From contig JAMOPD010000344.1 in the NCBI GenBank assembly GCA_027064745.1, positions 1 through 7,493 on the forward strand: 7,493 nucleotides of DNA, read 5' to 3'. Numbering within the stretch: the stretch's first letter is position 1; every line of letters starts with the position of its first letter. The position numbers and the translations under genes are program-made. A model generated the notes under the pieces. The model did not search any database. It was not told the origin of the DNA and worked only from the letters and a program-made list of their open reading frames with translations. Origin of the DNA: Thermococcaceae archaeon. GTDB taxonomy: Archaea; Methanobacteriota_B; Thermococci; Thermococcales; Thermococcaceae. Below are positions 1 through 7,493 of the stretch, piece by piece.

Positions 1-29
1 TCTTAAATTGGGCTATACTACGAATCCCC

Positions 30-1358
30 CTATCCCTCCGGGCTTTCATTTCCTTCACCTCCAAATATAACATGATAATTCATCTCGGGCTTGAAATATT
101 GCTTTCTTTTTATCCAAATAAAACCATCTCCTTTTGAAATAACTGCAACATCAATTGGTCCACCAACAGTTTCAAGTTCTGGGGTATATTTGCGGCGTAA
201 TGATGTTAAATGCACTAAACTTTCTGCAAGAGCTGCCAATTCATCTTTTGGAAGTACTCCAACGATGGCCAAGATAGGTTGGGCATACTCCTCTTCTCTG
301 AAACTTTTAATACCATTTATGAGGTTTTCAATGATAATTTTATTGTCTTCCTCTAATCGGGCAACTAAGTCTTGTTTTTCTTTTTCATTATATTTATTAA
401 GGCGAGATATTATAAGTTTTGTGTATTCCTCTAACACCTCAGACATGTATCTTTTAATCTCATCAATGTACTTTGGTGCAATTCCTCCCATAAAGGTGTC
501 AATCATGCCTCTCTGGGCAAATGGGATGACTGCCGCATCACTTTCCTCTCCTATTTTATGGTATATACCTCGACGATATTTGGGCTGTCCTTCAATTATG
601 CACTCTATATCAAGAGAAATAAGGGAAGGAAATACCTCCTTCTCTCCAAATCCAGCGATTACTATACCAGAAGTTCCTTGGTTAATAATTTCTTCCGGAA
701 ATCTTGTAAATAATAGAGTAGCAATCTCAACTAATTTGTCCTTCCCTTTATTAGGTATAGGAAGTTTCTCAAACCGTTCCTGTATGAGTTGAATAAAAGT
801 TTTCTTGTATTTTCTCTTTATTTTCTTCTCAAATTTTTCGTCAATATTTTCTGACCTTGGGCTATTAGTCCAGATATCATAGTGCCTCTCTATGACTTCC
901 ATGATTATGTTTTTTAATATGGTTTCTTCCTTATCCTCGGGAATTTCACCTTCATTTTTAATAATGGATTGGATTTTTTGAAAAATTTCATCTAGCATGA
1001 ATGAAAAATACCCATACACAGATGACTTCAGATTTCTCAGCTGCAAGAATTCTGGAAAAAGTGTTCTGTTGTCAGTCAAGAACTTCACAAAGTCCTCTGT
1101 GTACTCTTCTATAGTGTCAAATCCGCTTCCTCCTAATTTTTTCCTATACATTTTGATTATAGTTTCCCAAGGAGTTCCGATCAATGTGGCATTTCCGTAT
1201 ACCATCACTCCAACAGGATGAACTTTAGACAATGGGAAAAGTTTATTTGCAGATGGAAACACTTTAGGTCTATCGTAGAAAGGAGTACCTACGGTTACCG
1301 CACTGTCTGCGGCAAGAGCAACGGCTTCTCGATTTAATATGGCAATTTCACTTGTCAT
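30..1358 (-). CDS. Predicted Ntn-hydrolase (proteasome beta/HslV-like), complete, 442 aa
   Basis: The start of this protein matches the N-terminus of proteasome beta subunits. After Met removal it begins with Thr, and the segment REAVALAADSAVTVG follows. With that Thr as residue 1, Asp17 falls exactly where proteasome subunits carry their conserved acidic residue 17, and the NKLF segment (Lys38) resembles the KLF segment containing proteasome Lys33. GVMVYGNA (50-57) resembles the strand and turn after it. A largely helical, charged stretch (about 64-225) separates this part from further beta-like segments (GIVIAGFG 231-238, SLISLDIECII 245-255), then another helical part (about 295-350) and a final strand-like segment (GGPIDVAVISKGDGF, 399-413). 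The family is therefore inferred to be a threonine-nucleophile amidohydrolase, but at 442 residues it is about twice the size of a proteasome subunit. No signal peptide or membrane segment is seen, so it is probably cytoplasmic. The ATG at 1356-1358 is preceded by GGGGAT at 5-nt spacing and is the only start that places Thr at position 2. The substrate is unknown, and no ATPase partner lies nearby. Confidence 0.8.
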   Translation of the reverse strand: MTSEIAILNREAVALAADSAVTVGTPFYDRPKVFPSANKLFPLSKVHPVGVMVYGNATLIGTPWETIIKMYRKKLGGSGFDTIEEYTEDFVKFLTDNRTLFPEFLQLRNLKSSVYGYFSFMLDEIFQKIQSIIKNEGEIPEDKEETILKNIIMEVIERHYDIWTNSPRSENIDEKFEKKIKRKYKKTFIQLIQERFEKLPIPNKGKDKLVEIATLLFTRFPEEIINQGTSGIVIAGFGEKEVFPSLISLDIECIIEGQPKYRRGIYHKIGEESDAAVIPFAQRGMIDTFMGGIAPKYIDEIKRYMSEVLEEYTKLIISRLNKYNEKEKQDLVARLEEDNKIIIENLINGIKSFREEEYAQPILAIVGVLPKDELAALAESLVHLTSLRRKYTPELETVGGPIDVAVISKGDGFIWIKRKQYFKPEMNYHVIFGGEGNESPEG

Positions 1359-1609: not shown

Positions 1610-3457
1610 ATGGAAGACCCACACATCTGGATGGAGAATCTGAATGATGAGAGAGTTCTGAAGTTCATTGAGGAGGAAAACAAGCGCTTTAGGAAATTCA
1701 TTGGTGATTTGCCAGAAAAGCTAATTGATGATGTGAGAAAGTACTATTATTTGCCCAACATCTGGGAGGCTCAAATTACAAAGAGAGGAACATTTGTGAA
1801 GATAAATGAAGCAGGAAGACAGCTCATAAAACTCCTTGAGACTGGAGAAATTATAGTTGATTCTAAAAAGCTTGAAGAAGAGCTTGGCGATGAGGTTCTC
1901 CTTCAGAGTTTCACCGCTGACAGAGAGGGGAAAAGATTGGCTTATAACTTCTCAATTGGAGGAGCTGATGAGGGGATAACGAGAATAATTGACCTTAAAA
2001 CTGGAGAAATCATCGAGGAGATAAAGCCATCCTTGTGGAATATCGTTTTTCTCGATGATGGTTATTATTTCGCTCGCTTCTACCGAAAAGAAAAGACTCC
2101 CGATGGAGTCTCTGCTCCAGCAGAGAGAATTTTTCTGAAGAAAGGGGAAGAGGAGGTTATGGTTTTTGGTGAGGGACTTGGTTCAGGATATTTCATGAAT
2201 CTGCACAAGAGTACGGATGGAAAGTGGGCAATGCTGACGGTTACATTCGGCTGGAACAAAGCCGATATCTATCTCGGCCCGATTGATAAGCCAGAAAAGT
2301 GGAGAAAAGTTTATTCAAGCGATGTTCCAGCGCATCCGATAGATGTCATCAATGGAAAGTTCTACATTTATACGCGCGAAGGTAAGATTATTGCCATCAA
2401 AAATGACAAAGTCGAGGAGATTATCCCAGAAAATGAGTTTCCGCTTGAGTGGGCGATTATTGTCAATGACAAAATACTCGCCAGCTATTTAGTCCATGCC
2501 TCCTCGAAACTTAAGGTGTTTGCACTTGATGGAATGCTCAGGGAAGAGATAAGCTTTGAGACGCCTGCACAGCTTTATCCGCTTGACCATGATGGAAAAC
2601 AGGCTCTCCTTAGATATGAGAGCTTTACAGCTCCCTACAGGCTTTATCGCTTTAGAGACAAGCTTGAGCTGATTGATGAGGTTGAAGTTGAAGGGGAATT
2701 CCAAGTAAGTGAAGATTTTGCAGTTTCCAAGGATGGAACAAGGGTTCATTATTTCATGGTCAAGAAAAAAGGAACAAAAAGCAACAAAGCTTGGGTTTTC
2801 GGGTATGGAGGCTTCAACATTGCCTTGCTCCCAAGGTTCATTCCTCAGGTGATTCCCTTCATTGAACGTGGTGGAACTTTTGTGATGGCAAACTTAAGAG
2901 GTGGGAGCGAATACGGTGAGGAATGGCACAGAGCTGGAATGGGGGAGAACAAGCAGAATGTCTTTGATGACTTCATTGCAGTTTTGGAGAAACTCAAGAG
3001 TGAAGGCTATAAAGTTGCCGCTTGGGGAAGGAGCAATGGCGGGCTTTTAGTTTCTGCCGTGCTAACACAGAGACCTGATCTTATGGACACCGCTTTAATT
3101 GGATACCCAGTTATAGACATGCTGAGGTTTCATAAACTCTACATCGGCAGCGTCTGGATTCCAGAATACGGAAACCCTGATGATCCAAAGGATAGGGAAT
3201 TTCTGCTAAAGTATTCACCTTATCACAATGTGAAGCCTCAAAAATATCCGCCGACGCTAATCTACACTGGTCTGTACGATGACAGAGTTCATCCTGCACA
3301 TGCGCTCAAATTCGCCAAGAAGCTGAAAGATGTCGGTGCTCCTGTTTATCTGCGCGTTGAGACAAAGAGTGGACACATGGGAGCTTCGCCAGAGACCAGA
3401 GTAAAAGAACTGGCAGATTTATTGGCGTTTGTGGTTAAAACCCTCACTATCATCTGA
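1610..3457 (+). CDS. Prolyl oligopeptidase (prolyl endopeptidase, family S9A), complete, 615 aa
   Basis: This is a cytoplasmic serine peptidase that cleaves short peptides on the C-terminal side of proline, and probably takes part in peptide breakdown in a peptide-fermenting archaeon. The start MEDPHIWMEN is typical of the family N-terminus. A short N-terminal segment is followed by a beta-propeller of about residues 45-365, which gates access by size. The alpha/beta-hydrolase domain occupies about 366-615. The nucleophile is Ser475 in GRSNGG. The acid is Asp557 in YDDRVHP, followed by Arg559, whose equivalent in the porcine enzyme contacts the substrate. The base is His589 in SGHMGASP. NLRGGSEYGEEWH (428-440) is a family hallmark before the active site. 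The length matches my memory of the 616-residue P. furiosus enzyme, and the catalytic domain is nearly identical to it. There is no signal peptide. The gene diverges from the Ntn-hydrolase gene and converges on the membrane protein gene, so it is probably monocistronic. The ATG directly follows an in-frame TAA, so the start cannot lie further upstream. Confidence 0.97.
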   Translation: MEDPHIWMENLNDERVLKFIEEENKRFRKFIGDLPEKLIDDVRKYYYLPNIWEAQITKRGTFVKINEAGRQLIKLLETGEIIVDSKKLEEELGDEVLLQSFTADREGKRLAYNFSIGGADEGITRIIDLKTGEIIEEIKPSLWNIVFLDDGYYFARFYRKEKTPDGVSAPAERIFLKKGEEEVMVFGEGLGSGYFMNLHKSTDGKWAMLTVTFGWNKADIYLGPIDKPEKWRKVYSSDVPAHPIDVINGKFYIYTREGKIIAIKNDKVEEIIPENEFPLEWAIIVNDKILASYLVHASSKLKVFALDGMLREEISFETPAQLYPLDHDGKQALLRYESFTAPYRLYRFRDKLELIDEVEVEGEFQVSEDFAVSKDGTRVHYFMVKKKGTKSNKAWVFGYGGFNIALLPRFIPQVIPFIERGGTFVMANLRGGSEYGEEWHRAGMGENKQNVFDDFIAVLEKLKSEGYKVAAWGRSNGGLLVSAVLTQRPDLMDTALIGYPVIDMLRFHKLYIGSVWIPEYGNPDDPKDREFLLKYSPYHNVKPQKYPPTLIYTGLYDDRVHPAHALKFAKKLKDVGAPVYLRVETKSGHMGASPETRVKELADLLAFVVKTLTII

Positions 3458-4172
3458 TTTTTGATTTTATTTTTTCAGCAATTCCCTGTCTAAAAAGAAT
3501 GTAATAACCTATCAGGTTTATCAAGATGGTTAATGTAGTTGCCATTATTAAAGCACGGTAGACGGCATCTTTAATGCTCTCATTCATCCTCCTGAATATT
3601 GCATAGCGAATATACTCTGATGGACTCATCGGTTTCATTGCTAAATTAACCTTAATGGTGCTTTTTTGAGGAAGTAAAGAAAAAGCATGATTCCATGTAG
3701 CAGTATAGATTCTGACATGTGTCCTGTTTTCAACACAATTATCAATCACAATGTTACCATACGAACATGTCAAGACACCGAAAGTAGCCCAGATTCTCTT
3801 GTGGTCATATGTTTCAAATGTTATCGTTCTGTTTTTAGGATAAACAGTAATAGGTTCTATATCCTCAGCTGAACCATAAAAGAGCAATCTAATGTACTTA
3901 TAAAGCTGGTCTATTATAGGTTTCCCACTATTCTCCCCTTTCCAGAGGACATAATATGTAACTCCCCCAGAACGCTCAAAAGTATATAGCATGAGCTCTG
4001 GTTTATCTTTTGGGAATGTGTAGATAATCGGAGAGTAACGAAGCGCTTTTTCTCCGTGAGCTGGAAGATAGCCTTCCAAGGTGTAACCGGTTTCATAAAG
4101 AGATATGCCAAGTATCATCATAAAATTAAGAATAATCCAGATTACAAAGAGCAATTTTTTCCACTTTGACAT
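3450..4172 (-). CDS. Unrecognised membrane-anchored protein with external domain, 240 aa
   Basis: I do not recognise a family. The N-terminus is MSKWKK followed by a hydrophobic segment (about 7-26, LLFVIWIILNFMMILGISLY), which suggests a signal anchor with the N-terminus inside. Residues about 27-206 form a soluble, Tyr- and beta-rich domain with two cysteines (136 and 146) that could form a disulfide. It has three N-glycosylation sequons (NRT at 114 and 149, NES at 197), in keeping with an external location. A second hydrophobic segment (about 207-227) is followed by a short basic tail, so both ends are probably cytoplasmic. I chose the ATG at 4170-4172 because AGGTGA sits 5 nt upstream; a GTG at 4179-4181 would add three residues and overlap the lhr stop as GTGA. 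The gene follows lhr in the same direction and is probably co-transcribed with it, with no obvious functional relation. Its last codons overlap the end of the convergent peptidase gene by 8 bp. Downstream there is no strong T-tract on its own strand. Confidence 0.8.
   Translation of the reverse strand: MSKWKKLLFVIWIILNFMMILGISLYETGYTLEGYLPAHGEKALRYSPIIYTFPKDKPELMLYTFERSGGVTYYVLWKGENSGKPIIDQLYKYIRLLFYGSAEDIEPITVYPKNRTITFETYDHKRIWATFGVLTCSYGNIVIDNCVENRTHVRIYTATWNHAFSLLPQKSTIKVNLAMKPMSPSEYIRYAIFRRMNESIKDAVYRALIMATTLTILINLIGYYILFRQGIAEKIKSKIR
3458..3475 (+). terminator. Oligo-T terminator of the prolyl oligopeptidase gene
   Basis: Immediately after the TGA stop the plus strand runs TTTTTGATTTTATTTTTT, three T-tracts of 5, 4 and 6 without a preceding GC-rich hairpin. 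This is the usual intrinsic termination signal of euryarchaeal RNA polymerase. It lies inside the last codons of the convergent minus-strand gene, where the same bases encode the Lys/Ile-rich C-terminus. Confidence 0.7.
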
Positions 4173-4177
4173 ATCAC

Positions 4178-4183
4178 TCACCT
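4178..4183 (-). promoter_or_regulatory. Shine-Dalgarno site deciding the start of the membrane protein
   Basis: The minus strand reads AGGTGA, a strong match to the archaeal GGTGA ribosome-binding consensus, 5 nt before the ATG at 4172. It overlaps the lhr stop codon (TGA at 4178-4180) and also contains the alternative GTG start at 4181, which has no comparable site of its own. This supports the ATG and suggests translation coupled to the end of lhr. Confidence 0.65.
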
Positions 4184-7100
4184 ATTTTGACAATCACTAT
4201 TTTCAATCATCGCCATTATCTTTCTATGCAGCTGCTTAATCAGCTCTCTCCTATCTTCCATAAGCACAACATCACTCGAGCCTATCACTTCAAGGTTGAA
4301 GGCAAACGGCGAAGGCAGTTCATTCTGTTCAAAAACTACTTTTATCTTACCCTCTTTGATCCACTTCAAAAACAGCTCCGCGTTTTTAACATCCATTTTA
4401 TCCTCCATGATCTCACGGTAGACCTCTTTGAGGAGTGGGAAGTCGGGATAATTCTCTTTGAGAACTCTGAGTAAAGTTACCGCCATTACCTGCTGTCTGC
4501 CGAGACGTTTGCTTCTACCAACATAACGCCTAAGGATCAGCAGACCTCTATTGGCAACATGCCTAAATCTTCGTTTTAAAAGCTCTGTATTGTCAAGGGC
4601 TCTCTTTAGTGTTTCTTTCATATCGTCAATTTCAAAGAGCGCTCTTATCTCCGTCTCACTCAATCTTTTTTCAGGAGGCAGGAGGAGAGCAAAGCCGTTG
4701 TCACTTATAGCTATTCCCACATTGCACTTTTTCCACTTACTCACCATATACGCGAAAACCCTACTTAATGCATCGTTGGCACGCCTGCCTATTAGGGTGT
4801 GGAAGAAATACTTGTTTCTCCTATCGCTAAGAACTTCCTCAACGAGGATGGTTTCATCATCTGGTATTGTGGAGTATCTAGCCTGCTCCCTGAAGTAGGC
4901 CAGAATCGCCTTTGCGGCTCTTTCATCTATACTGTACTTCCTCATGAGAAGTGACTTGCTGGCCATACCCTTGACTTCTCTCCTAAACCTCTGGATATCT
5001 AAAGCTAAGTCAAAGCTCAGCGGAAGCATCTCCGAGAACCATGCTGGAATAGTCGGTCTTGCTCCTTCCCTTGGAATTACATATATCTTATTACCCCTGC
5101 TTTTGACAAATTCATATGTTCTTCCAGCTAAAACAAATATGTCCCCAGGCATCAGCCTTTCAGCAAACTCTTCCTCCACTGTCCCAATGAGCTTTTTATC
5201 CGTTGTATAAACCCTTATCTTGGCTTCATCAGGTATAGTTCCAACATTCATGTAATAAATGGCTCTCGTCATCTTTCCTCTTCTTCCAAATTTGCCTTCC
5301 TCTTCATCGAGCCAAATCTTTGCATAAACTTTCTTTTCTTCTAAACCTGCATATTCGCCTGCCAGATATCTTAAAACGCTCATAAAATCTTCAAAAGAAA
5401 GATTACGATATGGATAAGCTCTCCTAACTAGGTTATAGGCATCTCTAATTTTCCAGACTTGGTTAAGTGCCATTCCAAGCAGATGCTGAACTAGAACATC
5501 GAGGGGATTCTCAGGTATTTTAATTCTATCTAGCCTCCTATTCCTTGCATTATGAGCCAAAACAGTACATTCAACTAAATCATCCCTGTCTAATACGAGA
5601 ATTATCCCTCTGCTTACATCATGCAAATGATGTCCTGCCCTACCGATTCTCTGTAACGCACGATTCACGCTCTTTGGAGAGCCGATTAAAACAACAAGAT
5701 CAATACTTCCGATATCTATTCCCAACTCAAGAGATGTAGAGCTGTTTTTTGAGATAAAGCCGTTAACAACATAGTTTTCAGTTTCTGAGTCTATTATTCC
5801 ATAGGCTTCATCGATAAAAGTAGGCTTAATTTCCTTGATTTTATCAAAGAATATATCACCCTCTGCAAGATTGAGTAACTCTTTTATTTCATGAGCGAGA
5901 TTTTTATCTCCCTTCTCCTCAGCTTTCCTCAAGTAGAATCTTAAAAGCTTAATCATGCTCCTTCTACTTATTTGTCTCATTCCTATTTCCACTTTTTCTG
6001 GATTATAAAGCTCTTTCTGCAGTCTGTAAGTGCTTATTCCAAGTCTCAATCGGATACTCCGAAGTTTCTTTCCCATATTCGGAATTACATCTTTGTTTGA
6101 GTAACCTGAGAATTTAAACTCCTTAATTTTCTTTAGTGTCTTTTTCCAGGGCTCTATAATTTCAAAAAATCGTCTAAGATATTCTCCTCCCAGCACTGCG
6201 ACGGTATAGGCGGTACCTCTTTTTGGAATTGTCCTACCTCTAAATATCTGAACTTCATTGTATGTTCTTTCCCTAATTGATGCAATAATTCCAAATGAGA
6301 GCAGTAAATTTCTAATACCTTCAGCAAAGTCCTTATTGAATGTTGTGAATCCTGCTGAGAATATCCGACCATTTTTAACTTCCAGGTATCCATCTCCATC
6401 AAAGTATCCAGACAAGAACTGTTTCCTATTCTCCAACGGAAGGATATATAGAACGTTTGGAAATGCTCCATTTTTAGATTTCCTACTATTGTTATCGACT
6501 AGAATTTTGAACATTTCCATAAGAGTCCTGAAAGACAGCTCTAGGCTATAGGTACTGGTATTTTGCTTTCTAATTATTGGCTTAACTCCAAACTCTTTTT
6601 TAGCCATTTCTCCATATTTTTCCAGCATTTCAAGGTCGCTTGAGAATAGGGTTATAGTTCCACTTTTCCATGAACCATCGGCAATCCAAAAGCCAAGGAG
6701 ACGAGTCATGAAAGGAGTAAAGGAGGAGGGTATCTGATACTTTCCTTTGTCTGTTGTTATCTTAATGACATTTTCGCTTGGCATTTCAAGAGAGAACTCT
6801 TTCAGAATTTTTCTTAGCAAGCTCCATCTGAACGGATAAAGTCCATTAAGCTGTCTTGTTAAGTAGCTTCGGCTCACTCCCATTCTCTTTGCAAAAGTAC
6901 TAATTGAACCGTATTTACCCTGTATTTCACTTTTTAGTTTGCTCAAGAACGCTTTTTTTAAATGGAGGTATGCTGAATCTGGCAGAAACTCAAAAATCTC
7001 AACTTCCTTCTCAACAGATGTAAACTTTCGAAGAACAGTTATATAATCCCCAACTTTCAAATCCCTCGCTTCGACCCACTCAGGATTTCCATCTTTATTA

Positions 7101-7493
7101 ACAGTTAGGAATCTGTGCTCCTTCGTTACATTGACTTCAAAGCCAAGAGTTGTCCGGATCAGTAAACCTTCAGCCAAGTATTTAATTTTATGAGGCTTTC
7201 TAAACTTAACGAGCCTTGTTTTTCCATTCTCAATTGCAGTAATTGCTTCGTTTCCATGTAACTCCTTTATCATTTTAATCCCGTTGTCAGTTAGTATCTT
7301 AGAGTTTCCTGCCACACATACAACAGCCCTGAGTTCCCCTTTCTTCAATTTCTCCTCAACTTCAAGTCTAACATCTCTTGACAAGCTGGAATGGTGGGCT
7401 TCAACTAATTCAGCATATTTTGGAAACTTTTTCTTGAGGTGATATGCCACTCTCTCAGCTCCGCTCCTAGTGTTTGTGAATATCAGAACTGTT
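4178..7493 (-). CDS. lhr: Lhr-family SF2 helicase, 5'-truncated by window edge, interrupted by an intein
   Basis: Lhr proteins are ATP-dependent superfamily 2 helicases that translocate 3'-5' and are linked to DNA repair and nucleic-acid unwinding. The reading frame is open through the window edge, and its first visible residues, TVLIFTNTRSGAER, are helicase motif IV. The GTG at 7448-7450 is therefore internal, and the RecA1 domain with the ATP-binding motifs lies outside the window. The RecA2 domain continues to GELRAVV, is broken by the intein (5744-7318), and resumes with SSTSLELGID (motif V) and QRIGRAGH (motif VI, about 5629-5652). After that come a winged-helix region, a beta-rich segment with ERLMPGDIFVL and TIPAWFSEMLPLS, and the Lhr-specific C-terminal domain with RRANDALSR. 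The end LPSPFAFNLEVIGSSDVVLM is typical of archaeal Lhr. The visible flanking sequence totals 579 residues; archaeal Lhr proteins are usually about 850-950, so roughly 300 residues are missing. I cannot assign it to aLhr1 or aLhr2 from this part. The membrane protein gene follows 5 bp downstream. Confidence 0.93.
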   Translation of the reverse strand, partial: TVLIFTNTRSGAERVAYHLKKKFPKYAELVEAHHSSLSRDVRLEVEEKLKKGELRAVVCVAGNSKILTDNGIKMIKELHGNEAITAIENGKTRLVKFRKPHKIKYLAEGLLIRTTLGFEVNVTKEHRFLTVNKDGNPEWVEARDLKVGDYITVLRKFTSVEKEVEIFEFLPDSAYLHLKKAFLSKLKSEIQGKYGSISTFAKRMGVSRSYLTRQLNGLYPFRWSLLRKILKEFSLEMPSENVIKITTDKGKYQIPSSFTPFMTRLLGFWIADGSWKSGTITLFSSDLEMLEKYGEMAKKEFGVKPIIRKQNTSTYSLELSFRTLMEMFKILVDNNSRKSKNGAFPNVLYILPLENRKQFLSGYFDGDGYLEVKNGRIFSAGFTTFNKDFAEGIRNLLLSFGIIASIRERTYNEVQIFRGRTIPKRGTAYTVAVLGGEYLRRFFEIIEPWKKTLKKIKEFKFSGYSNKDVIPNMGKKLRSIRLRLGISTYRLQKELYNPEKVEIGMRQISRRSMIKLLRFYLRKAEEKGDKNLAHEIKELLNLAEGDIFFDKIKEIKPTFIDEAYGIIDSETENYVVNGFISKNSSTSLELGIDIGSIDLVVLIGSPKSVNRALQRIGRAGHHLHDVSRGIILVLDRDDLVECTVLAHNARNRRLDRIKIPENPLDVLVQHLLGMALNQVWKIRDAYNLVRRAYPYRNLSFEDFMSVLRYLAGEYAGLEEKKVYAKIWLDEEEGKFGRRGKMTRAIYYMNVGTIPDEAKIRVYTTDKKLIGTVEEEFAERLMPGDIFVLAGRTYEFVKSRGNKIYVIPREGARPTIPAWFSEMLPLSFDLALDIQRFRREVKGMASKSLLMRKYSIDERAAKAILAYFREQARYSTIPDDETILVEEVLSDRRNKYFFHTLIGRRANDALSRVFAYMVSKWKKCNVGIAISDNGFALLLPPEKRLSETEIRALFEIDDMKETLKRALDNTELLKRRFRHVANRGLLILRRYVGRSKRLGRQQVMAVTLLRVLKENYPDFPLLKEVYREIMEDKMDVKNAELFLKWIKEGKIKVVFEQNELPSPFAFNLEVIGSSDVVLMEDRRELIKQLHRKIMAMIENSDCQNR
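5744..7318 (-). mobile_element. Intein with LAGLIDADG homing endonuclease in helicase motif V of lhr, 525 aa
   Basis: The insertion starts with Cys1 (TGT at 7316-7318) and ends with Asn525 (AAC at 5744-5746); the next host residue is Ser (5741-5743). Removing it joins GELRAVV to SSTSLELGID, which restores an uninterrupted motif V with the spacing seen in Lhr proteins. Splicing blocks: the N-terminal CVAGNSKILTDNG; block B with Thr65-x-x-His68 in VTKEHRFLTV; and the C-terminal EAYGIID and NYVVNGFISKN. The residue before the final Asn is Lys524, where most inteins have His. The endonuclease has both motifs, with acidic residues Asp214 and Asp309. A helix-turn-helix-like segment lies before it (intein residues 138-159) and a second after it (415-437). 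No stop or frameshift interrupts the element, so both splicing and homing could be active. Inteins in Thermococcales Lhr proteins have been described, as I recall; whether at this exact site I cannot confirm here. Confidence 0.93.
6389..6700 (-). other. LAGLIDADG endonuclease core within the intein
   Basis: The first motif LLGFWIADGS is encoded at 6671-6700 and the second FLSGYFDGDG at 6389-6418, about 94 residues apart, a normal distance for a monomeric two-motif enzyme. Each has its metal-binding aspartate (codons 6677-6679 and 6392-6394), and the intervening sequence is uninterrupted. By family knowledge it would cut an intein-free lhr allele at the motif V coding sequence and promote copying of the intein. 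Confidence 0.85.

What the first reader, a model, noticed from the sequence alone, without database searches (positions are those of the whole stretch)
30..1358. Orphan double-size proteasome-like threonine hydrolase
Directly visible: Thr at position 2, an acidic residue exactly 16 residues later, and a KLF segment resembling the proteasome Lys33 region, followed by about 160 residues of mostly helical insertion before the strand pattern resumes. Known: proteasome beta, HslV and Anbu use an N-terminal Thr or Ser with equivalent residues. Inferred: this is a separate, enlarged Ntn-hydrolase family whose nucleophile is exposed by methionine aminopeptidase and not by propeptide autolysis. The insertion could replace the neighbouring subunits of a ring or form a substrate gate. 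Its substrate and assembly state are, as far as I know, undescribed.
Basis: partly seen in the sequence, partly recalled or inferred. Interest (0 to 1): 0.7.

Follow-up and report, generated by a model that had tools for sequence, protein, structure and literature searches.

The report
Proteasome-like enzyme with tiny partner gene
This archaeal gene encodes a protein predicted to be a free-standing relative of the proteasome's cutting subunit, and in nearly all the genomes and viral contigs examined the same gene is followed at once by a tiny gene whose product likely keeps the enzyme in check, which gives a first handle on what this large unstudied enzyme family does.

The parts
30..1358 (-). 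Proteasome-like N-terminal-threonine hydrolase gene, 442 aa (ATG 1356-1358, stop TAG 30-32)
1353..1355 (-). Codon of Thr2, the predicted nucleophile, directly after the start codon
   Evidence: Invariant where aligned; model residue 2 at chain residue 1 of proteasome beta5
1305..1307 (-). Codon of Asp18 (proteasome Asp17 equivalent, inferred)
   Evidence: Invariant where aligned
1242..1244 (-). Codon of Lys39 (proteasome Lys33 equivalent, inferred)
   Evidence: Invariant where aligned
714..1052 (-). Helical insertion 1, residues 103-215, after the first helix pair
   Evidence: Predicted secondary structure
186..509 (-). Helices 284-391: second helix pair with long inserted helices (295-366)
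   Evidence: Predicted secondary structure
93..173 (-). Most conserved block ETVGGP.D......GDG..W..RK.YF, residues 396-422; Glu396 lies where proteasomes have Asp166 (my reading of a recalled motif)
   Evidence: Conservation; the best stretch of the family profile's match to proteasome beta chains, E 0.014
1..49 (-). Start of the small partner gene, 16 codons MKARRDRGIRSIAQFK, overlapping the hydrolase gene by 20 nt; the contig ends here
   Evidence: 5.5 bits to the partner profile, reached by 4 of 2000 shuffles; same position as in related loci
55..62 (-). Ribosome-binding-like GGAGGTGA, 5 nt before the partner ATG
   Evidence: Sequence

Best explanation
This is a two-gene module: a protein predicted to be a free-standing proteasome-type threonine hydrolase, and, overlapping its 3' end, the start of a small partner gene that follows the same enzyme gene in nearly all related loci examined and whose product likely restrains the enzyme. 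Steps. (1) Shown: Thr2 follows the start codon without a propeptide; Thr2, Asp18 and Lys39 are invariant where aligned. (2) Predicted: the chain folds as a proteasome beta subunit with helical insertions after the first helix pair and in the second pair. (3) Inferred: methionine aminopeptidase frees Thr2, which is then the nucleophile. (4) Shown: a partner ORF (median 61 codons in the genome loci) overlaps or closely follows the stop codon, evolves under purifying selection and, in its cellular form, faster than the enzyme. (5) Inferred: the overlap couples translation, so that enzyme and partner are made together; the conserved motif (S..EFEK.YFP.S in the cellular form) and C-terminal helix bind the enzyme and block or gate its active site. 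(6) Inferred: loss of the partner in an infected or stressed cell would free the hydrolase, in the manner of a toxin-antitoxin or defence module, which fits carriage by prophages, phage satellites and plasmids and the patchy distribution.
For: Fold. Catalytic residues. Partner: 72 of 78 genome loci and 73 of 77 viral loci have an ATG-started ORF of 40-80 codons starting -40..+30 nt from the stop, against 52 of 540 and 70 of 499 control genes of the same loci; dereplicated at 80% identity 68 of 74 and 42 of 46. Of the 6 genome misses, 3 have a GTG-started partner, 1 an 89-codon one, 1 a 37-codon one, and 1 (L065) none. The partner was the most frequent neighbour cluster, at position +1 in all 29 of its loci. 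One profile, built from 38 genome partners, matches 65 of 78 (those 38 and 27 others), and finds a partner in 38 of 40 whole genomes, most of which supplied a row of the profile. dN/dS below 1 in 62 of 62 usable pairs of 104, median 0.17. Start of the partner in this window. Overlap in 59 of 78 genome loci. Mobile carriage. Patchiness: 1 of 94 genomes of the taxonomic family and 1 of 115 of the phylum (sets overlap). Asymmetry, weak: two decayed-looking partner copies without enzyme were found, whereas enzyme without any partner-like ORF was rare.
Against: Nothing here shows that the partner touches the enzyme or inhibits it. Only 3 of 78 viral partners match the cellular partner profile, so one shared binding mode is not shown. 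Neighbours show at most a weak surplus of defence-gene matches. Four loci with enough sequence carry the enzyme without a partner-like ORF (L012, L065, L107, L109). Many copies lie on cellular contigs whose mobility was not tested. The distance correlation between the two proteins (r 0.755) follows from linkage as well as from interaction. The window shows only 16 partner codons, and the profile score of that piece is low in absolute terms (5.5 bits).
Confidence: 0.45

Rival explanations
1. The partner is an activator, adaptor or assembly factor: it completes or positions the enzyme or brings substrates, and the pair is a regulated protease of ordinary protein turnover.
For: Near-obligate pairing and overlap fit a subunit as well as an inhibitor; single proteasome subunits are inactive until assembled (stated in PMC8665760); the large helical insertions could bind a partner.
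Against: The partner diverges more than the enzyme (median pairwise identity 23% against 42%) and most viral partners are not detected by the cellular profile; sporadic, partly mobile distribution is unusual for housekeeping turnover.
Confidence: 0.27
2. The partner is the enzyme's own substrate or tag: the enzyme cleaves it or joins it to other proteins, as connectase joins proteins.
For: Connectase, a proteasome homolog, is a specific protein ligase (PMC8665760); the cellular partner has an invariant Pro, after an aromatic or Leu, in 38 of 38 rows of A3.
Against: No strict motif is shared by cellular and viral partners; the model has the first helix pair that connectase lacks (connectase features).
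Confidence: 0.12
3. The enzyme works alone and the small ORF is incidental.
For: Such ORFs occur near 52 of 540 and 70 of 499 control genes; four loci with enough sequence have no partner-like ORF (L012, L065, L107, L109).
Against: Control contrast, conserved sequence family, purifying selection, and annotation as genes in several records.
Confidence: 0.03

Closest known systems
PMI-4 (proteasome homolog with multiple insertions), Fuchs, Alva and Lupas 2021, PMC8665760
   Same: Proteasome-beta core with long insertions after helices H1/H2 and between H3/H4; no propeptide; found in many bacterial phyla, Euryarchaeota and phages (paper text; here)
   Different: The paper reports no suggestive genomic context, and the partner gene is not mentioned in the parts of the text read.
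20S proteasome beta subunit
   Different: Twice the size, no propeptide, large helical insertions; ring assembly not known
Connectase
   Same: Proteasome-like protein with inserted helices and no propeptide
   Different: Connectase lacks H1-H2 and has its insertion between strands S3 and S4 (paper text); here H64-75 and H83-96 are present and the insertions lie elsewhere
Anbu
   Same: Structural match (5nyg, Foldseek rank 16, E 3.5e-3); no propeptide (paper text)
   Different: Anbu lacks the two long helical insertions (recalled); no partner gene known to me
Type II toxin-antitoxin modules (as a way of working)
   Same: Two overlapping or abutting genes, one large and catalytic, one small and fast-evolving; often mobile and patchy
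   Different: Toxicity and neutralisation not tested; no matching toxin or antitoxin family found

Membership tests
Proteasome-like family (sense of Fuchs et al. 2021) | N-terminal Thr or Ser nucleophile | tested here: met
   Thr2 after the start codon in 171 of 171 family ORFs with that column aligned; activity itself untested
Proteasome-like family (sense of Fuchs et al. 2021) | Asp17 and Lys33 equivalents | tested here: met
   Asp18 172 of 172, Lys39 174 of 174 where aligned; structural equivalence inferred, since no residue-by-residue alignment was printed
Proteasome-like family (sense of Fuchs et al. 2021) | Conserved beta-sheet core with flanking helix pairs | tested here: met
   AlphaFold2 model, Foldseek and VIA-align matches to 20S beta subunits
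PMI-4 | Long insertion after H1/H2 | tested here: met
   Helices 103-215 in the model
PMI-4 | Insertion between H3 and H4 | tested here: met
   Helices 295-366 between helices 284-291 and 371-391; the assignment of H3 and H4 is mine
PMI-4 | Sequence similarity to PMI-4 representatives such as HDY66466.1 | not testable with these tools
   The sequence could not be fetched; PMI-3 shares both insertions but is rare and not marked for phages in the paper's Table 1
20S proteasome beta subunit | Propeptide (most beta subunits) | tested here: not met
   Start codon directly before Thr in 171 of 171
20S proteasome beta subunit | Assembly into stacked seven-membered rings | not testable with these tools
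   No complex prediction available
Connectase | First helix pair absent, two-helix insertion between S3 and S4 | tested here: not met
   Helices 64-75 and 83-96 present; no helix between the strands at 21-23, 32-34 and 40-42 of the model; strand naming is mine
Toxin-antitoxin module | Two adjacent co-oriented genes in near-obligate pairing | tested here: met
Toxin-antitoxin module | Larger protein toxic alone and neutralised by the small one | not testable with these tools
   Needs expression experiments

The most novel reading that the evidence does not exclude
A minimal protein-tagging system: the proteasome-like enzyme is a ligase, and the roughly 60-residue protein encoded next to it is its dedicated tag, which it cuts or couples to target proteins; phages, satellites, bacteria and archaea carry the enzyme and its tag as one cassette.
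Probability: 0.1. Interest if true: 0.9.

Novelty: new variant of a known kind. Interest (0 to 1): 0.6.

Why it matters
PMI-4 is the most numerous of the 22 newly described proteasome relatives in the table of Fuchs et al. (501 sequences) and had no functional lead. A partner gene that accompanies the enzyme across archaea, bacteria and phages turns 'unknown proteasome homolog' into a defined two-protein system that can be co-expressed, pulled down and assayed. If the partner is an inhibitor, it is a genetically encoded natural ligand of a threonine-hydrolase site; if it is a substrate or tag, it points to a new peptide-joining enzyme. The partner is also easy to miss: in the two E. coli prophage loci read it is not annotated.

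Tried and rejected
Sequence libraries: no meaningful Pfam, NCBIfam or PADLOC match for the enzyme; only phrog_5990, unknown function. By single sequence, no PDB relative: best of 10 matches E 0.35, unrelated. The profile's best PDB sequence matches were cullin-3 (E about 1e-3) on the helical insertion; I take these as chance helix similarity because only helices align, while the proteasome match (E 0.014) falls on the conserved block.

Defence islands: PADLOC on 140 of 363 near neighbours (within 3.5 kb) of the genome loci gave 23 families, led by mad2 6 and mad8 3; on 140 of 221 far neighbours (beyond 5.5 kb) 10 families, one protein each. A surplus exists, but one protein can match several families, one locus can supply several proteins, and some matches look like generic enzymes (my judgement), so I do not count it as evidence for defence.

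Ubiquitin-like operons: on Rhizobium and Mesorhizobium plasmids the gene lies near multiubiquitin and ThiF genes. A blastp of these genes against the ORFs of the 176 loci then held found them only in L012, L014 and L016 themselves: a local association.

Natural fusions of enzyme and partner: none found (14 candidates, none at E <= 1e-3). Flank orientation in viral loci was mixed (13 of 45 with both flanks opposite), so it is not used as an argument. Partner elsewhere in the window's genome: best E 0.41, not significant. Second partner matches occurred in three of 40 genomes: two were inspected, look decayed and lie without the enzyme; the third region (L188) was fetched and not inspected.

A structure model with the partner read through in frame gave three partner helices at moderate confidence; without coordinates no docking claim is made. 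A search of the viral structure library gave one match at E <= 1e-3, a phage protein named proteasome beta type-2 subunit.

Literature: searches listed no paper on this enzyme beyond PMC8665760. Of PMC8665760 I read parts 1-5 of 6 of the text, not its supplement. Of PMC13022661 I saw only passages found by term search, all in its reference list. The library lacks most subscription papers and all preprints.

Full report
What is in the window. The named ORF is real and lies on the minus strand (1358 down to 30, 442 aa). Upstream, divergently, is a prolyl-oligopeptidase gene (1610-3457), then a 243-aa ORF without Pfam match and an Lhr-type helicase with an intein on the minus strand. The window begins at base 1 of contig C344 of an assembly of 424 contigs. 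The enzyme is absent from the other 93 genomes searched in its taxonomic family and the other 114 in its phylum (the sets overlap, and incomplete genomes are among them). The oligopeptidase occurs in 37 of 41 genomes of the genus. In 11 relatives' loci fetched around it (about 1.5 kb on each side) the enzyme gene is not found, while part of the helicase gene is found in 5 of the 11. So the enzyme gene is a patchy, probably acquired gene (inference).

Is the class known? Yes. Fuchs, Alva and Lupas (PMC8665760, text parts 1-5 of 6 read) described 22 new proteasome homologs, among them PMI-3 and PMI-4 with insertions after H1/H2 and between H3/H4; [quoted passage not shown] In their Table 1 PMI-4 is the most numerous PMI and the only one marked for phages. 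The model has these two insertions, and relatives occur in many bacterial phyla, Euryarchaeota and other archaea, and phages. I file it as PMI-4 with the caveat that their sequences could not be compared. The same paper states that no genomic context or co-occurrence suggestive of a specific function was found.

The new element: a partner gene. I fetched 80 genome loci (of 484 stretches that encode a relative) and 80 viral loci (of 164), besides one earlier viral locus and annotated phage and plasmid records. Clustering 2181 neighbours by blastp, the most frequent cluster was an ORF of about 59 aa, always at position +1, in 29 loci (27 genome, 2 viral). A direct scan showed a short ORF right after the enzyme in almost every locus. 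Control: an ATG-started ORF of 40-80 codons beginning -40..+30 nt from the stop occurs after 72 of 78 family genes and 52 of 540 other genes of at least 200 aa in the genome loci, and after 73 of 77 and 70 of 499 in the viral loci (with GTG and TTG starts allowed, 75 of 78 against 109 of 540, and 74 of 77 against 117 of 499). Left out were L077 (no family ORF called) and L033 of the genome loci, and L098, L105 and L108 of the viral loci (too little sequence or no stop codon). Dereplicated at 80% identity: 68 of 74, 42 of 46, and 7 of 9 for the annotated records. Misses: among the genome loci L037, L088 and L090 have GTG-started partners, L066 one of 89 codons, L049 one of 37 codons, L065 none; among the viral loci L110 has a GTG-started and L176 a 34-codon ORF, L107 and L109 none. 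The plasmid copy L012 also has none. In the genome loci the partner start overlaps the enzyme gene in 59 of 78, in the viral loci in 26 of 78.

The partner is a real protein family. An alignment of 38 chosen cellular partners has an invariant Pro and the consensus ..Y.S..EFEK..FPKS......DP...G..LA.ESL.KI...L. A profile from it matches 65 of 78 genome partners (its 38 rows and 27 others) and 3 of 78 viral ones, and 44 database proteins. One of those, CVT88_08720, bears the locus number next to that of the enzyme homologue CVT88_08715. dN/dS is below 1 in all 62 usable pairs (0.06-0.48, median 0.17; 42 other pairs were saturated or failed; pairs are not independent). Five of the annotated records list it as a gene; in others it is present but not annotated, for example L009 and L014. 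It has no meaningful Pfam match. It diverges more than the enzyme (median identity 23% against 42%), and the two distance matrices correlate (r 0.755, 0 of 5000 permutations, n 64), which linkage alone could produce. In 40 whole genomes, most of which supplied a row of the profile, 38 have a match (41 matches); two of the three second matches were inspected, look decayed and have no enzyme beside them.

The partner in this window. Reading the minus strand through the end of the ORF, GGAGGTGA (62-55) precedes an ATG at 49-47, giving MKARRDRGIRSIAQFK before the contig ends. The offset, 20 nt before the end of the enzyme gene, is within the range seen in relatives. The peptide scores 5.5 bits against the partner profile, modest in absolute terms; 4 of 2000 composition-preserving shuffles reach it. 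The rest of the gene is not in the window, and no significant second piece was found in the assembly.

Where the pair lives. Phage records: 13 of 50,697. In the Streptococcus satellites read, the enzyme is the last or next-to-last annotated gene in three and lies seven annotated genes before the end in one. Plasmids: 10 of 72,556, 8 of them over at least 80% of the query. E. coli: each of two distant probes matched parts of 22 of 5426 genomes, on chromosomes only. The two loci read lie among phage genes, one directly downstream of a helix-turn-helix gene on the same strand, one inverted beside RusA and antiterminator genes; neither partner is annotated, and one enzyme start is placed 32 codons too far upstream. 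In viral loci frequent neighbours are Q-like antiterminator, HNH nuclease, RusA, holin and methylase genes. These are places where accessory phage genes are often found (recalled). Whether the cellular genome loci are themselves mobile was not tested.

Mechanism. Shown: conserved catalytic residues, near-obligate pairing, coding selection on the partner, carriage by mobile elements in part of the loci. Predicted: fold. Inferred: that the partner binds and restrains the enzyme, and that release of the enzyme serves the mobile element or its host. The asymmetry (two decayed-looking partners without enzyme; few enzymes without partner) favours restraint over an optional accessory role, weakly. 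Activator and substrate or tag readings are not excluded. The read-through model suggests three helices in the partner but shows no contact.

Verdict. Observation confirmed; interpretation partly right; the enzyme class is known; the two-gene module is, within the text read and the searches listed under Tried and rejected, unreported.

Noticed in passing
window 4178-7492 (minus): Lhr-type helicase interrupted by an intein with a LAGLIDADG homing endonuclease (Pfam matches).
   Followed up: no
window 3450-4181 (minus): 243-aa ORF between the oligopeptidase and the helicase without Pfam match; a homologue lies in the same place in one relative (L193).
   Followed up: no
L012, L014, L016, L189: On Rhizobium and Mesorhizobium plasmids the enzyme gene lies within a few kb of multiubiquitin and ThiF (E1-like) genes, in the Rhizobium loci also a Clp-type protease; not found in the other loci tested.
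   Followed up: partly
L204 10789-12189; L205 10957-12240: In two E. coli prophages the small partner is unannotated (34 and 49 aa), and in one the annotated start of the enzyme is 32 codons upstream of the conserved Met-Thr.
   Followed up: yes
L186 2914-3225; L187 around 2650-2810 (minus): Decayed-looking partner genes without the enzyme, in both cases beside genes that look like carbon monoxide dehydrogenase subunits (name recalled from the sequence).
   Followed up: partly
L163, L145, L148, L126, L106 and similar viral loci: Viral partners fall into several groups (ELREWQKKFNPS, QPKSINDFF, FFNLP-like and other motifs) that the cellular partner profile mostly does not detect; whether they are one family is open.
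   Followed up: partly
model of the window protein, residues about 84-163: The family profile matches a helical stretch of cullin-3 at E about 1e-3; taken as chance, not examined further.
   Followed up: no
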